From NCBI GenBank assembly GCA_003134555.1, contig PLBO01000152.1:98048-140420 (forward strand): DNA of 42,373 nucleotides, given 5' to 3'. This DNA is from Actinomycetota bacterium (GTDB lineage Bacteria; Actinomycetota; Acidimicrobiia; IMCC26256; PALSA-610). A program made the translations under genes and the position numbers. The notes beneath the pieces were generated by a model. It searched no databases, had not been told where the DNA came from, and saw only the letters and a list, made by a program, of their open reading frames with translations. This document shows positions 31,359 through 41,642 of the stretch, piece after piece. The number at the start of each line of letters is the position of its first letter. The stretch's first letter is position 1.

Positions 31359-31491
31359 TCGGGGAGGTCTGGAGCGGCGGAGACCACGCGGCGAGTACCG
31401 ATCGATCTCCTCTTTGTTGTCAAGGGCTGTTCGTTGGTCCGGTCGCGGCGGGTTGTGGTGTTCTGGGCAGCCGGGTTCTAGCGTTGGGCCG

Positions 31492-32618
31492 GGTCCGGGA
31501 GTGGTTCTTCCGAAGCGCCGGTGTTTGGGGTTCGAAGCCGGTCACGCTGGATTGATGAGTCGTCCCCGCTTGCCCTCCCGGGCCCGCTTTGGTTCGTGCT
31601 GCGTCGGCGCGGAGTTGGCGGTAGATCGTGTCGGTGATCCGCCGCTTCAGCGCCGCCGCGTAACGCTTGTTTCTTCGTCTTGCCGGCAGCGAGTTTGCGG
31701 TCGTAGAACGCGCGCCCCGGCGAGTGACGGTGACGAATCTGCGTGACGGCCGCGATGTGGATCGCATGGTTCAACTGGCGGTTCCCGCGTAACGAGAGCC
31801 GTCGGATGGAGCGGCCGCCGTATTCGAACTCGATCGGAGCGGTCCCCGCGTACGCGGCGTAGTGGTCGCGGTCAGCGAACCGGTTGATGTTGCGCGTGTG
31901 ACCGATCACCATCGCCGCGACGACCGGTCCGACACCGAAGATGTCAGTCATCGTCGTGCCCGACGCGTGCACCGCGGCTTCGAGACGTCGTTTCGAGGTG
32001 CGCATTTGGGTGTCGAGGTGACGGAGATCGTCGAGATGTTCACACGCGAGGTCGTGGCGGATCTGCGCGACCGGATCAGCGGGTGCGACACAGTCGAGAA
32101 GTTCCTAGGCGGCCCGCACCGTCATTTCCTTGGAAATACCGCCCGGAACGAGCTCGATCAGCAGCGCATGGAGCCGACATGCGCTTCGGTTCCGGGCCCG
32201 GCCCAGATCTCGATGCCGTTTCGCCAACAACCGCAGCACCTCCGCATGATCCGCTGGTTGCACCGGCTGCACGCCAGGCGCACGCGCGGCAATCGCGATC
32301 GACAGCGCGTCGTGACGATCCGTCTTTTGCGACTTCGTCGTTGCCAACACCCGCACCCGCGACGCCAACGCCGCCGGCACATCCAACACCCGCTCCCCGG
32401 CACCAACGAGCTGCTGCTCGAAGGAGATAAGCGAGCCCACCCGCGGACTCGACCGCCCAAACGCGTTCCCCGAACTCGGCTGCCCAGCCGAGCAACTGAT
32501 CGAGCTGACGCGGACCCGAACGCACCTGCAAGCTCGCGCACTGTTGTTCGTTCGCGTCGATCGCGACTGCCATGTGCGAACCCTTGCGCGGATCGACACC
32601 AATCACCACCACCCCCAT
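31492..32618 (-). pseudogene. IS110-family transposase, disrupted by two frameshifts and a stop
   Basis: The N-terminal DEDD (RuvC-like) domain is readable: VVIGVDPRKGSH (first Asp), WAVESAGGL (Glu) and KTDRHDALSIA (two Asp). The C-terminal Transposase_20 part reads MTDIFGVGPVVAAMVIG, HYAAYAGTAP and LRGNRQLNHAIHIAAV. Lesions are a one-base frameshift near 32420 (after ESAGGLAYLL), an in-frame TAG at 32107-32105, and a frameshift near 31655 (before ALKRRITDTIYRQL). The residues after GTAPIE (FEYGG) lack the serine commonly seen there. The gene cannot make an intact enzyme. Confidence 0.88.
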
Positions 32619-32721
32619 CTGTCCCTCCCTCGCAAAAGCTCGTGTCGTGAGCGTCAGGGTGGGCACTCCTGATTCTGGAGGATCGTGCTCGCGCACCTCT
32701 TTCGAGCCACACCCCAACCGG
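31492..32721 (-). mobile_element. Degenerate IS110-family insertion sequence (copy 1)
   Basis: The element is built around a broken IS110/IS1111-type transposase on the minus strand. The 3' boundary is placed at 31492, where similarity with the second IS110 remnant of the window stops (both read GGTCCGGGA there on the plus strand). The 5' boundary is uncertain; a related GGTCCCGG lies at 32721, but the non-coding left end could reach 32870. IS110 elements have no terminal inverted repeats, so the ends cannot be fixed by inspection. With the second copy (same orientation, 38694-39285) it brackets a 7-kb transporter island. Confidence 0.7.
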
Positions 32722-36459: not shown

Positions 36460-37222
36460 TCTCCCTCACGTCAGAGTCGCAGCGCGTCATGCAGACCGGA
36501 CCACTGCCGAGCCCTTCTGCCTGATGCCGCGAGCACCGAAACGGGCTATCCGCCCGACGAACCAGGACGCCATGAGTACCGAGCCGTTGCGAGTGGAGGC
36601 GCTCAACATCAACAGTGACGCCTAGACGAGGCGATCACGTTGTCTGCGGTTCGACTCGAGGACCGCGTCCGACGTTCGTTGCCACTTGCGACGGCGTGGC
36701 GTCGTGGTCCTTCCGGCAATGCATCGCGTTTCGATGAGGTCGCGCGCTACCACGACGTTCTCAGGCAAGAGCAACAGATTGTTCGCGGCGCTGGAGTCCT
36801 TCGGCAGCCGGACGGTCTTCGGGCAGGGCCCCGAACGTGCATCGAATCCGGTTCCCAACGCCGGTCAGCACCTGCTGCGTCGGGTCCGGATCGCGCTTGC
36901 ACGTGGGGGTTCACGTCGGTGGGCCGAAGACTCCGAGATTCACTGGCGATTGCGGCCATGGTCGGAGGCGGCGTGAGCCGGCGATGGTTGTTCGCGTAAC
37001 CGTCCCCGATCGGGCAATCGGTCCGCGTTCGCGATTGCAAGCGCATGGCCTCGGTTCGCTCGCGAAGTGCGTCCGCTACCCGGCGATCTGTGGCAGGGCG
37101 CGGCCGGGATTAGGGGACGCGCGTTTGGGGGCCACCCATCGTGTCGTTCTGTGCGTTCTCGGTAGGGCTGTGCGGTGCCGCGGTCGGAGGATTGGCTCGG
37201 TGCTGTTCGGCGCTGAACGCGC
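36460..37222. other. 763-base stretch without a supported gene
   Basis: Open frames here are short, overlap each other on both strands and lack recognisable domains. One minus-strand frame (36622-36858) contains NNLLLLPENVVVARDLIE, faintly reminiscent of an HNH-type relic, but without the His/Cys pattern. No convincing terminator is seen after the ABC operon. Near the right end, 37122-37161 resembles 38645-38684 on the far side of the NRAMP gene. The region looks like decayed sequence next to an IS-rich locus. Confidence 0.5.
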
Positions 37223-38506
37223 TTATGCCTTGAGGAGGGCGATGAGTGGGAAGGCGGTCATCGCGATGCCGGCGACGGAGGTGGCGATGAGCGACGCCGG
37301 CCCCGAGCGGAACTCGCCGAGGACTCCGCGTGACCGGGTGAGGATGATGATCAACAAGATGAGGGGCGGTGCGGTGAGGCCGTTGAAGATCGCGGCGAGG
37401 TACAGAGCGCGGATCGGATTCACTCCGATGCCGACCAATGCGAGGCCGATTGCCATGGAGGCGATGATCACCGCGTAGAAACCTGGGGCGTCTTTGAGCC
37501 GGCGGCTCAGTCCTTCGTGCCAGTGCAGTGCTTCGGCAGCCGCGTAGGCCGTGGCTCCGGCAAGCACGGGTACCGCGAGCAGACCAAGCCCGACGATCCC
37601 TAAGGCGAAGATGATCTTGGCGAAGCTTCCGGCGAGTGGTTCGAGTGCCTTGGCGGCTTGCTCGGCCGTTTGGATGTTGACCGATCCGGACTTCCCGAGG
37701 GTGACCGCCGCGGCGCACATGATCGCGAACATCGTGCCCACGCCCGACAGCATCCCGGTCCATACGTCGACGCGCATCGCGATGAGGTGCGGGCGATCAA
37801 CCGGTGCTGCAGTCTCGCTGTCATCTCGTTCTTCAACTTCCTCAGAGCATTGCCAGAAGAACAAGTACGGCGAGATGGTCGTACCCGCGATCGCGGTCAG
37901 AGCGATCATGGTCGTCGCGTCGAAACCGAAGCGAGGTACGAATGTTCGCGCGAAGACCGCGGACCAGTTGACGTGAACGACGGCGAGGACCAACACGTAC
38001 GCGACCAACGACAACGCGAGCCACCGAAGGACACGGGAGTACCGGTGGTAGGGCACGAACACTTCCGTCACCCCGATCGCCACCGCGAAAAGCACGACAC
38101 CCATGCCGGCGGGGACAGGTACCAACAGGCGTAATGCCGCGCCCATGGACGCGAGGTCGGCGGCAATGTTGAGCGTGTTCGCGGAAGCGACCAACAGCAC
38201 CGCGCCGACAAGCACCCAGCGCGGGAACCGTTCGCGGATCAGCGTGCCGAGACCTTTACCCGTTACGAGCCCAAGGCGTGCGGTGGATTCCTGGACGCCG
38301 ACCGCGAGTGGGAGAAGGAACGGCGCCATCCATAACAACGACAAACCCTGCGCTGCGCCGACCTGTGAGTACGTCGCGATGCCCGACGGATCGTCATCGG
38401 CAGCACCGGTGACAATGCCCGGACCCAGCCGCTTGAAGTAGCCGTGACCGCGCAGCGACCCCCGACTGGGATGATGCGCCACCTCGGACTTCGCGCGGAT
38501 CGACAT
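37223..38506 (-). CDS. NRAMP-family divalent cation transporter-like protein with non-canonical metal site
   Basis: A 427-residue membrane protein with about eleven helices and the NRAMP fold order: GPGIVTGAADDDPSGIATYSQVG in helix 1, QESTARLGLVTGKGL, and helix 6 with AIAGTTISPYLFFWQCSEE. Canonical manganese/iron NRAMPs have DPGN in helix 1 and MPH in helix 6. Here these are DPSG (39-42) and SPY (212-214), so the soft-metal-selective methionine and the proton-relay histidine are absent. Related NRAMP-like branches move magnesium or aluminium, so the ion is open. ATG 38506 is chosen over an upstream in-frame start because homology begins there. Confidence 0.85.
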   Translation of the reverse strand: MSIRAKSEVAHHPSRGSLRGHGYFKRLGPGIVTGAADDDPSGIATYSQVGAAQGLSLLWMAPFLLPLAVGVQESTARLGLVTGKGLGTLIRERFPRWVLVGAVLLVASANTLNIAADLASMGAALRLLVPVPAGMGVVLFAVAIGVTEVFVPYHRYSRVLRWLALSLVAYVLVLAVVHVNWSAVFARTFVPRFGFDATTMIALTAIAGTTISPYLFFWQCSEEVEERDDSETAAPVDRPHLIAMRVDVWTGMLSGVGTMFAIMCAAAVTLGKSGSVNIQTAEQAAKALEPLAGSFAKIIFALGIVGLGLLAVPVLAGATAYAAAEALHWHEGLSRRLKDAPGFYAVIIASMAIGLALVGIGVNPIRALYLAAIFNGLTAPPLILLIIILTRSRGVLGEFRSGPASLIATSVAGIAMTAFPLIALLKA

Positions 38507-38693
38507 CGAGCCATTGTCCCATCGTCGGTGATCTCGACCGCGCCTCACCCGCGTCGACTGCCCCGGACATGCCGGTCGGCCGCGATCGCGAACGCCCCGG
38601 TGCCGGCGATCGGGGATACCCGGGGCGCGTCGTTCGGGGATGCACGTTATGGCGCACCCGACGGCGTCGTTCCGTGCGGTTCCGGCTGGTGGC

Positions 38694-39285
38694 GGTCCGG
38701 GAATGGCCGTTCCGAAGTGCCGGTGTTCAGGGATCTGCCGGCCGCGCTGGATTCAGAGTCGCCCCTGGTTGCCTTCCCGGACCCGTTTCGTTCAGGTGGT
38801 GGTGTCGGCGCGGAGTTGTCGGTGGACGGCGACGCTGATCCGTCGTTTCAGGCAGCGCATCGCTTCTTTGCGGGACTTCCCTTCGGTTTGCTTGGCGAGG
38901 TAGTAGGCACGGCCAGGGGTGTCGTGGCTGATCTGGCCGAGCGCGGCGATGTGGATCGCGTGGTTGAGTTGGCGGTTGCCGTTCGGGTTGAGGCGGTGTC
39001 GTTTCTTCGGGCCCGTGGACGCTTCGATGGGTGCGGTCGCGTTGTAGCGGGCGTAGTGACCGGCGCTCGGAAACCGATGAACGTCGCCGCTGTAGCCAAT
39101 GAGGTAGCACGCGACGATCGGACCGACACCGAACACGTCGGTCACCGACGTGCGCGCGGCCTTCACGGCATCGTCGATGCGTCCGTGGAGCTCGACCAGC
39201 GCCCGGTCGATCCGACGGACCTCGTCCAAGAACTCTGCCGCGATCCGTTTACGTTCTATCCCGACCTGATCGTGGGGGCGGAGCT
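38694..39285 (-). mobile_element. IS110-family remnant (copy 2): C-terminal half of a transposase
   Basis: Only the C-terminal half of an IS110-type transposase remains: VGIERKRIAAEFLDEVRRI, VTDVFGVGPIVACYLIGY, YNATAPIEASTG (with the expected serine), LNPNGNRQLNHAIHIAAL and AMRCLKRRISVAVHRQL. The frame ends at 38792, and a shifted frame continues the conserved tail (GPGRQPGATL) up to about 38694. The similarity with copy 1 extends about 95 bases past the stop. The 5' half, including the DEDD catalytic domain and the left end, is missing; the frame instead continues upstream into an HD-GYP gene without a stop. Confidence 0.85.
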
Positions 39286-39846
39286 CGGGCATGCGTCCGA
39301 ACGCCTCGATGACGTCGGGGGCGAAGTGGCTGCCGGCATTGGTAGTTAGGTATTCGACAGCGGCGGTCAGGGTGTATGCGTTGGGGCGGTACGAACGAGG
39401 ATGGGTCAGCGCGTCGTAGACGTCGGCGACAGCGACGATACGGCCTGCGAGGGGGATATTGGCGCCCGCGAGCCCGTCTGGGTAGCCGCGGCCGTCCCAC
39501 CGTTCGTGGTGGGCGCGAACGGCGGCCGCGACCGGATCGAGCCCGGGCGAGATCGTGCGCAGGAGATCGGAACCTACAGACGGGTGGCGGTGCACCTCAG
39601 CCCATTCGTCAGAGTTCAGTGGGCCTTGCTTGGTGAGAATCTCCGCGGGCACGGCGAGCTTGCCGGGGTCATGGAGCAACCCGGCCCGTGGACGACTTCA
39701 AGCTCTGCGTCAGGAAGCTCGAGCTCGACACCGATTGCGCGCGCGATCGCACCGACACGTTGGGAGTGCTCGGCGGTGCCGCGGTGATAGACGACCATCG
39801 CGTTCCCGAACGCAGGCACGAGGTGCGAGAGGCCCGACGTCAGCAC
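39285..39846 (-). pseudogene. HD-GYP domain (c-di-GMP phosphodiesterase) gene, frameshifted and fused to IS110
   Basis: The gene starts at GTG 39846, two bases after the GGDEF stop. The first frame reads VVYHRGTAEHSQRVGAIARA and DAELEVVHG. A one-base deletion near 39685 (a T missing in GGTTTG) moves the sequence to another frame, which reads LLHDPGKLAVPAEIL, HRHPSVGSDLL, RAHHERWDGRGYP, VADVYDALTHPRSYR and HFAPDVIEAFG. These hold the HD, HHExxDGxGYP and other metal-site residues. At about 39285, near the natural end of the domain, the frame runs without a stop into the IS110 transposase. With the frameshift, the product as written lacks the first His. Confidence 0.85.
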
Positions 39847-39848
39847 GC

Positions 39849-41642
39849 TCAGGCGAGAGGGATCGGCTGGGAATGGTCAGCTCGTTCGACGGCGACGACT
39901 ACGCGGTTGCGGCCGTTGGCTTTGGCGGTGAGGAGTGCTTGGTCGGCGATGGCGACGATGTCGTCGAAGGTGTCGGCGTCGGTTGAGGATGCGACGCCGA
40001 AGCTGACGGTGAAGGCGGGGACGCGTCCGCTGGTGAGGGTGACTGCGAGTTGCTCGCGTAGGCGTTCGAGGATCTTGGTTGCGGTTTCGGTTGGGCAGTC
40101 GGGTAAGACGATGACGAACTCTTCGCCGCCGTAGCGGGCGGTGATATCGCTGGGTCGGACGGAGTCGCGCAGGACTTTGGCGAACAGGCGGAGTGCTTGG
40201 TCGCCTGCTTCGTGGCCGTGGGTGTCGTTGAGGATCTTGAAGTGGTCGAGGTCGCCGTAGGCGAGTGCGTACGGGGTTGCGTCTCGGGTGAGTTCGCGTA
40301 CCCGGTTTTCGAGGCTGCGGCGGTTCCATAGGCCGGTGAGGGGATCGGTTCGGGCTTGCGTTTCGGATTTCGCGAAGGCGCGGAGCATGGCGATGCGTTC
40401 GGACGCGTGGCGGGTCGTGATTTCGAGGTAGCGGACATCGTTTTCGTTGGGCGGGGTGCCGTCGGGTCCCATGGCGTGCACGACGCCGGAGCTGCGGCCG
40501 GTGACGCTGATCGCGACGCACGCGGCGGACAGTTCACCGGATGGACGCCCGGCGAGATGCGGGCATGCGTTCAGTTCTTGGCTGGAGGGGAACACGAGGG
40601 TGTGACCGCGCCGGGTGGCAGGACAATCGATCGGTGACACGACATCACAACCGCACCGTTGGTCGGTTTGCGACGGTTCGGTGGTGTGGAGGGTCTGGTG
40701 GAAGTGGGCGCCGCTGGAGTCGGCGACAAGCATTTCCACTTGCAGATGCGGCACGGACGTTCGCAGCGCTTTGGTCACGACGGTGTAGGCGTCGATCTCG
40801 GTGTCGGCCATGTCGAGCGCTTCTTGCAGGGTCGCTTCGTAGTTCCGTCGTTTCGTGTTGCTCCGCGTCGCGTATTCGCGGCGACGGAGTTGTCGCCCGA
40901 GCAGTAACGCGGCGCCGATCGCAAGCGCGGCGGCGCAGGCATCCGCGACGAGAGCGACGACGCGACCGTTATCGAGCTCGCGGATGCTGCGCTGCGCGTC
41001 AGCTTGACTCAGCGCTCGCAGACGTGTCGCCGCATCAGCGGTCACCGCTCGCGCTTGGGTGAACCTCGTCTGTTCCGCCACAAGCGTATTGGCGATCACC
41101 GCAAGCGGTCGCCCGCCGATGAGTGCCCCCAACGCGGTCAACGATTTCGTGAACGTCGCGCTCGCGGAACTGATCGCCGCCGCGTCGTCGCGCAAACCCA
41201 GCGCGCTCAACGACTTCGTAGCGGCCGCGGTTTGCGTGACGGCGGTCTGCACGATCTTCACGCCGGCCGCGATGTCCGTCGGATCGAACGTCGTCGCAGT
41301 CGTGGACAGTCTTGTGAACTGCGGCAACAAGTAGAGTTGAAACTCCGCGAACGTGGCGCGCAAATCCAACACCTGTTGCAATGCCAGATCGTCACGCGAC
41401 GCGCGGCGAACGTCGGCCCGGCCCGAGAGCATCGGTCCGACACTGAGCACCGCGAGCACCACGACGATCACCACCGCGGCCGCCCCGTACGTCCAGACCC
41501 GCCGCCGCGCCCGCAAACGCAACAACGGGTCTCGCCGCCGTCCCCGCATCATCGGAGCACTCGACTGCGATTGCGAGCGAGTCTCGAGTCCATCGCACCT
41601 TCTCGCGTCGGGGAGGCTCAGCCGCGATCCAAGATCGGCCAA
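39849..41642 (-). CDS. Membrane diguanylate cyclase with Cys-rich GAF-like and GGDEF domains
   Basis: A 597-residue signalling protein: membrane helix (about 50-70), a helical extracytoplasmic sensor (about 75-225), a second helix (about 235-255), a GAF-like domain (about 285-430) and a GGDEF domain. The GAF region has a cysteine set (RCGCDVVSPIDCPATRRG, NACPHL, SAACVAI) that could bind a metal or sense redox. The GGDEF domain shows DPLTGLWNRRSLENRV, GDLDHFKILNDTHGHEAGD, I-site RPSD and GGEEF at 505-509, so it should be active. TTG 41642 has GAGGG just upstream; ATG 41552 or 41549 are alternatives. It is in operon with the HD-GYP gene. Confidence 0.9.
   Translation of the reverse strand: MADLGSRLSLPDARRCDGLETRSQSQSSAPMMRGRRRDPLLRLRARRRVWTYGAAAVVIVVVLAVLSVGPMLSGRADVRRASRDDLALQQVLDLRATFAEFQLYLLPQFTRLSTTATTFDPTDIAAGVKIVQTAVTQTAAATKSLSALGLRDDAAAISSASATFTKSLTALGALIGGRPLAVIANTLVAEQTRFTQARAVTADAATRLRALSQADAQRSIRELDNGRVVALVADACAAALAIGAALLLGRQLRRREYATRSNTKRRNYEATLQEALDMADTEIDAYTVVTKALRTSVPHLQVEMLVADSSGAHFHQTLHTTEPSQTDQRCGCDVVSPIDCPATRRGHTLVFPSSQELNACPHLAGRPSGELSAACVAISVTGRSSGVVHAMGPDGTPPNENDVRYLEITTRHASERIAMLRAFAKSETQARTDPLTGLWNRRSLENRVRELTRDATPYALAYGDLDHFKILNDTHGHEAGDQALRLFAKVLRDSVRPSDITARYGGEEFVIVLPDCPTETATKILERLREQLAVTLTSGRVPAFTVSFGVASSTDADTFDDIVAIADQALLTAKANGRNRVVVAVERADHSQPIPLA

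What the first reader, a model, noticed from the sequence alone, without database searches (positions are those of the whole stretch)
38694..39846. In-frame HD-GYP to IS110-transposase chimera
One continuous reading frame (39679-38792) encodes the HD-GYP core and then, without a stop, the C-terminal half of an IS110 transposase. The junction near 39285 lies just past the natural end of the HD-GYP domain. The fusion could therefore have been tolerated as a new C-terminal tail before the frameshift at about 39685 arose. A fusion of a c-di-GMP phosphodiesterase with the Transposase_20 half is unusual.
Basis: seen in the sequence. Interest (0 to 1): 0.68.

Follow-up and report, generated by a model that had tools for sequence, protein, structure and literature searches.

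The report
Broken signalling gene fused to transposon
A bacterial signalling-enzyme gene has run into the back half of an old jumping gene; both halves look broken and the fusion is probably an ordinary accident of genome decay, although the jumping gene's tail end resembles a known tuberculosis small RNA.

Summary
The chimera is in the sequence. One frame (39679-38792, minus) joins an HD-GYP core to the C-terminal part of an IS110 recombinase, with the junction at about 39291-39298. The HD-GYP gene is the second gene of a GGDEF / HD-GYP operon. A related genome keeps the same order with an intact HD-GYP gene that ends eight codons past the last conserved residues, so the IS110 piece replaced only the native tail and stop. 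I read it as a remnant. The HD-GYP gene is one base short near 39685. The IS110 piece lacks its left end and RuvC domain. Its catalytic serine is threonine. No other genome searched shows the fusion. The IS110 right end is intact (about 38694-38791) and abuts a dispersed repeat. An unforeseen lead: read antisense, this right end resembles the mycobacterial sRNA family RF02341 (ncrMT1302). A model built only from 13 IS110 right ends finds the sRNA locus in four genomes. Chimera: ordinary. Right-end / sRNA link: worth a second look, direction of descent unknown.

The parts
39849..41642 (-). GGDEF (diguanylate cyclase) gene, first gene of the operon
   Evidence: Pfam GGDEF 1.4e-40; same gene order in G007 contig C159
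39680..39846 (-). N-terminal part of the HD-GYP gene (GTG start), in another frame than the rest
   Evidence: 52-61% aa identity to three G007 homologues; alignment
39679..39697 (-). Site of a one-base frameshift relative to relatives
39298..39679 (-). HD-GYP core inside the fused frame (HDxGK, HHExxDGxGYP present)
   Evidence: HD_5 7.4e-32; alignment
39291..39298 (-). Junction between HD-GYP 3' end and IS110 interior
   Evidence: ends of similarity on either side
38792..39291 (-). C-terminal part of an IS110 recombinase (end of coiled coil plus Tnp domain); catalytic Ser replaced by Thr; RuvC domain absent
   Evidence: Transposase_20 7e-15; aligned to IS621 chain 174-312; serine column
38694..38791 (-). 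IS110 right end (non-coding, structured)
   Evidence: conserved in 13 IS110 elements; boundary also from dispersed repeat
38701..38794 (+). Antisense to the right end: sub-threshold full-length match to Rfam RF02341 (ncrMT1302)
   Evidence: 30 bits, E 0.0057, gathering 45
38560..38693 (.). Dispersed repeat abutting the right end
   Evidence: 30 places in own genome at E<=0.001, window copy included; alignment
37223..38548 (-). Nramp-like transporter gene downstream (not part of the chimera)
   Evidence: Pfam Nramp 8.3e-75

Best explanation
A gene-decay remnant. An IS110-family element sat downstream of a GGDEF / HD-GYP operon, its right end against a dispersed repeat. A deletion, with one end in the last codons of the HD-GYP gene and the other inside the recombinase gene, removed the native stop, the IS110 left end and the RuvC domain. 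By a one-in-three chance this left the HD-GYP frame reading into the C-terminal part of the recombinase. The HD-GYP gene also carries a one-base frameshift and the recombinase remnant has lost its catalytic serine, so neither activity is expected. Shown: the parts, the boundaries, the intact relatives, the missing and changed residues. Inferred: the deletion as mechanism, the order of events, and the absence of function.
For: Same operon with an intact 191-aa HD-GYP ending in its own stop in G007:C159. Related full-length IS110 in G008 with DEDD and Transposase_20 domains. The window piece starts inside the coding region, which IS110 integration by its ends would not give. Frameshift. Serine column: 18 of 19 other distinct IS110 copies in the loci held have Ser, the one exception (Tyr) is the other decayed copy in this window, the window copy has Thr. 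Pro in HDxGK where 15 of 15 aligned relatives have I, L, V or T. Fusion not seen in the listed matches of 149 relatives (list truncated), nor in the other 394 of 395 class genomes at E<=1e-33, nor in the 80 loci kept of 444, nor in any locus held other than the window's own, of 210.
Against: The fused frame has no stop and the IS110 part shows no excess of amino-acid changes: 10 synonymous and 7 non-synonymous on the window branch, 10 and 8 on the C53 branch. That is also what recent loss of function would leave. Both halves give a confident predicted fold (mean pLDDT 87.8). The frameshift could be a sequencing error.
Confidence: 0.82

Rival explanations
1. The frameshift is a sequencing or assembly error; the gene encodes a full HD-GYP phosphodiesterase with an inert IS110-derived tail.
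For: The N-terminal part keeps the conserved residues in its own frame and the codon pattern is still that of a constrained gene, so the shift is recent or false; the junction lies beyond the domain.
Against: Pro in the HDxGK motif. No read data. The place is not a long single-base run, where such errors are commonest.
Confidence: 0.13
2. Assembly chimera at 39291-39298.
For: Draft genome of 154 contigs with several IS110 relics; the contig ends about 3 kb from the junction.
Against: The 121 bases over the junction match full length only here; no other place matches across it at length and the nearest IS110 copy is 79% identical on its side, so no shared exact repeat was seen that could cause a mis-join; both flanks look native.
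Confidence: 0.06
3. A functional chimera in which the Tnp domain gives the phosphodiesterase a nucleic-acid-binding or oligomerising tail.
For: Open frame; two confidently folded parts with a weak linker.
Against: Frameshift, lost serine, seen in one contig only, no added constraint. No experiment.
Confidence: 0.03

Closest known systems
HD-GYP c-di-GMP phosphodiesterases (Pfam HD_5; solved chains 4mcw, 4r8z, 5z7c)
   Same: HDxGK, HHExxDGxGYP and domain extent
   Different: First part out of frame, Pro in the HD motif, foreign tail
IS110-family recombinases (IS621, 8wt6; ISCro4, 9t56)
   Same: C-terminal part aligned over 138 residues
   Different: No RuvC domain, catalytic Ser is Thr, no left end
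Rfam RF02341 ncrMT1302 (equated with Mcr11 here by inference from its gene neighbours)
   Same: Full-length match on the antisense strand of the IS110 right end and reciprocal match
   Different: Below the family's gathering score; no evidence of transcription here

Membership tests
HD-GYP phosphodiesterase | HDxGK and HHExxDGxGYP motifs | tested here: met
   LLHDPGK and HHERWDGRGYP; HD_5 7.4e-32
HD-GYP phosphodiesterase | Complete domain in one frame | tested here: not met
   Profile matched only from position 47; first part in another frame
HD-GYP phosphodiesterase | Hydrolysis of c-di-GMP | not testable with these tools
   needs an assay
IS110 recombinase | Transposase_20 (Tnp) domain | tested here: met
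   7e-15
IS110 recombinase | RuvC-like DEDD domain | tested here: not met
   DEDD_Tnp_IS110 absent from the window ORF, present in the G008 copy
IS110 recombinase | Catalytic serine (S241 of IS621) | tested here: not met
   Thr in the window copy; Ser in 18 of 19 other distinct copies; column placed by the IS621 alignment
IS110 element | Left end and right end both present | tested here: not met
   right end present, left end absent
RF02341 ncrMT1302 | Score over the Rfam gathering threshold (45 bits) | tested here: not met
   30 bits
RF02341 ncrMT1302 | Reciprocal match with a model built from IS110 right ends only | tested here: met
   four over-threshold RF02341 loci found at 24.7-30.3 bits, E 1e-4 to 1.5e-3; in 412 kb of 68 other sources the only matches up to E=1 were four IS110 right ends, all of them in the model
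RF02341 ncrMT1302 | Expression as an sRNA | not testable with these tools
   needs RNA data

The most novel reading that the evidence does not exclude
The right end of this IS110 clade, intact in the fused remnant, is homologous to the mycobacterial sRNA family RF02341 (ncrMT1302, lying beside an Rv1264-type adenylyl cyclase gene, i.e. probably Mcr11). A regulatory sRNA of mycobacteria would then descend from a transposon end, or both from one mobile structured element found antisense at the 3' side of genes.
Probability: 0.35. Interest if true: 0.6.

Novelty: new member of a known kind. Interest (0 to 1): 0.25.

Why it matters
As a chimera it is a caution: in high-GC genomes an open frame across a gene and an insertion-sequence remnant is easily made and needs intact relatives and catalytic residues before a new protein is claimed. 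The right-end lead matters more: if a tuberculosis-group sRNA and an IS110 end share ancestry, it would give that sRNA an origin and suggest that IS110 right ends of this clade are, or were, transcribed structured elements.

Tried and rejected
Functional domain fusion: rejected for lack of recurrence and for damage in both halves. Selection test on the IS110 part: too few changes to separate the fusion from the C53 copy. Bridge RNA in the right end: considered and not favoured, because the left non-coding end of the G008 element is longer (at least about 230 nt against about 95 nt, and the rule in PMC11208160, passages seen) and because the loops of the right end are mostly conserved. Dispersed repeat at 38560-38693 as integron attC: looked at by eye, no clear attC ends, not pursued. 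Literature: IS110 with HD-GYP gave 1 paper, seen as a listing only; a five-term search gave none; ncrMT1302 gave 2 papers, of which passages of PMC4109619 were read; a search for Mcr11 or IS110 gave 745 papers, 6 listed; Mcr11 alone gave 87, 15 listed, of which passages of PMC8628891 were read. None of what I saw links the sRNA to IS110; no paper was read whole. Also read in passages: PMC11208158, PMC11208160, PMC11187229.

Against the right-end lead: RF02341 scores of the right ends stay below threshold. Nine of the RF02341 loci checked (L162, L171, L173-L179) have no IS110 tail by my profile, nor have the four sRNA loci, so the element is not tied to IS110 everywhere. Of 30 loci fetched from 53 right-end model matches in 37 of 395 class genomes, 23 have the IS110 tail beside them, 2 end at a contig end, 5 have none. 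The structure on the transposase strand shows more pairs with compensated changes (9 of 21) than the antisense strand (6 of 22), so the strand that matters is open.

Full report
What is there. On the minus strand a GGDEF gene (41642-39849) is followed two bases later by an HD-GYP gene starting with GTG at 39846. Its first 53 or so codons are in one frame; from about 39697-39679 on the coding frame is shifted by one base relative to three homologues in genome G007. It holds the HD-GYP core with HDxGK and HHExxDGxGYP and, from about 39291-39298, the C-terminal part of an IS110 recombinase (Pfam HD_5 and Transposase_20). The IS110 part aligns to residues 174-312 of the IS621 chain, which by the published domain borders (coiled coil 123-188, Tnp 189-326; passages of PMC11208158) is the end of the coiled coil and the Tnp domain. 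RuvC is gone.

Relatives. In G007 contig C159 a GGDEF gene and an intact 191-aa HD-GYP gene lie in the same order, nine bases apart. That HD-GYP protein ends eight residues after the last conserved residues (Ala-Phe), just before the window sequence leaves it; the other two G007 copies end nine and twelve residues after them. Elsewhere in the same genome, C53 carries a broken IS110 copy 88% identical over 400 bases that lacks the 3' end, and G008 carries a full-length relative with both domains. The window piece ends at 38694, where the right ends of other IS110 copies also end and where two copies of a dispersed repeat, on C69 and C19, begin to match. That repeat has 30 matches in the genome, the window's own included.

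Is the fusion more than an accident? It was searched for as a protein in 149 relatives (103 with some match; the printed list is truncated; no listed match other than the window covers both halves convincingly), in 395 class genomes at E<=1e-33 (27 with a match, only the window spans both), and in genome contigs (80 loci kept of 444). Three matches that seemed to span the junction (G005, G079, L091) carry only one of the two domains when scanned with profiles. In that scan of 6213 open frames from 210 loci, 120 carried the HD profile, 58 the IS110 profile and 5 both, all five being the window's own locus fetched several times. Plasmids gave no match to both halves in the 10 listed of 42 records.

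Damage. Besides the frameshift, the residue aligned with the catalytic serine of IS621 is threonine. Of 25 rows, 22 had Ser, 2 Tyr and 1 Thr; after removing the window's own row and repeats of the same place there are 19 other copies, 18 with Ser and one, the second decayed IS110 in this window, with Tyr. The HDxGK motif has Pro where 15 of 15 aligned relatives have another residue. On the IS110 part the window branch has 10 synonymous and 7 non-synonymous changes, the C53 branch 10 and 8, 11 more being ambiguous: no sign of selection special to the fusion. The predicted structure has mean pLDDT 87.8 and pTM 0.58 with a weak linker at about 131-150: two modules that fold, without a defined arrangement.

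Mechanism. The simplest account is a deletion between the 3' end of the HD-GYP gene and the interior of an adjacent IS110 element. In-frame joining has a one-in-three chance; the other two phases would have ended after 11 and 13 codons. I could not see reads, so an assembly join or a sequencing error at the frameshift cannot be excluded; the 121 bases over the junction match at full length only once in the genome.

The right end. A scan against Rfam gave a sub-threshold match of RF02341 (ncrMT1302, a mycobacterial sRNA) over 38701-38794 on the plus strand, antisense to the recombinase (30 bits, E 0.0057). The right ends of the second IS110 relic and of the G008 element match the same way (3 of 7 loci given). 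In 198 class genomes RF02341 had seven places at E<=0.01; six are directly beside an IS110 tail, antisense. In 396 phylum genomes it had 15 places, four over threshold, all in one genus. Two of these four (L167, L168) were checked with Pfam and lie beside a gene for an adenylyl cyclase with the Ad_Cy_reg domain; in L167 a PknH_C gene is near as well. That fits the published site of ncrMT1302 between an adenylyl cyclase gene and its neighbour (PMC4109619, passages) and of Mcr11 between rv1264 and rv1265 (PMC8628891, passages); that the two names mean the same RNA is my inference from these passages.

I then built a model from 13 IS110 right ends only. Among 13 loci chosen through RF02341 it finds 11 at E<=0.0015, the four over-threshold sRNA loci among them at 24.7 to 30.3 bits. 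In 68 other sources (412 kb) it finds only four right ends, all members of the model. In 395 class genomes it gives 53 matches in 37 genomes; of the 30 loci fetched, 23 have an IS110 tail beside them, two lie at a contig end and five have none. The two RNAs therefore share sequence and structure beyond what the control shows. Shared ancestry is plausible, but the direction is open: the sRNA may come from a transposon end, the IS110 clade may have taken up a structured element, or a third mobile element may have seeded both. The 13 loci were chosen by RF02341, so only the four over-threshold loci are a fair reciprocal test, and E-values of the model are rough.

Verdict. Observation confirmed with a small shift of the junction; interpretation partly supported; the chimera is most likely a decayed accident. 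Interest of the chimera is low; the right-end lead is recorded as the most novel reading not excluded.

Noticed in passing
window 38701-38794 (+), 31490-31586 (+): IS110 right ends that match Rfam RF02341 (ncrMT1302) below threshold on the antisense strand; a model from 13 right ends finds the sRNA locus in four genomes.
   Followed up: partly
window about 31490-32717 (-): A second decayed IS110 copy in the window, with frameshifts and Tyr at the catalytic serine position.
   Followed up: partly
window 38560-38693: A dispersed, partly palindromic repeat with 30 places in the genome, several each on contigs C19, C37 and C53; nature unknown.
   Followed up: partly
window 36580-36627 and G000:C53:5159-5206: A 48-base repeat, 98% identical, that would encode the same C-terminal peptide in two unrelated frames.
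   Followed up: no
L180, 1501-1596 and 1608-2822: A high-scoring right-end element (101.7 bits) about 12 bases from a long open frame that is not IS110 by my profile; a solitary copy or one taken up by another gene.
   Followed up: no
L175: A right-end-like element beside a DDE transposase gene (DDE_Tnp_1) rather than IS110.
   Followed up: no
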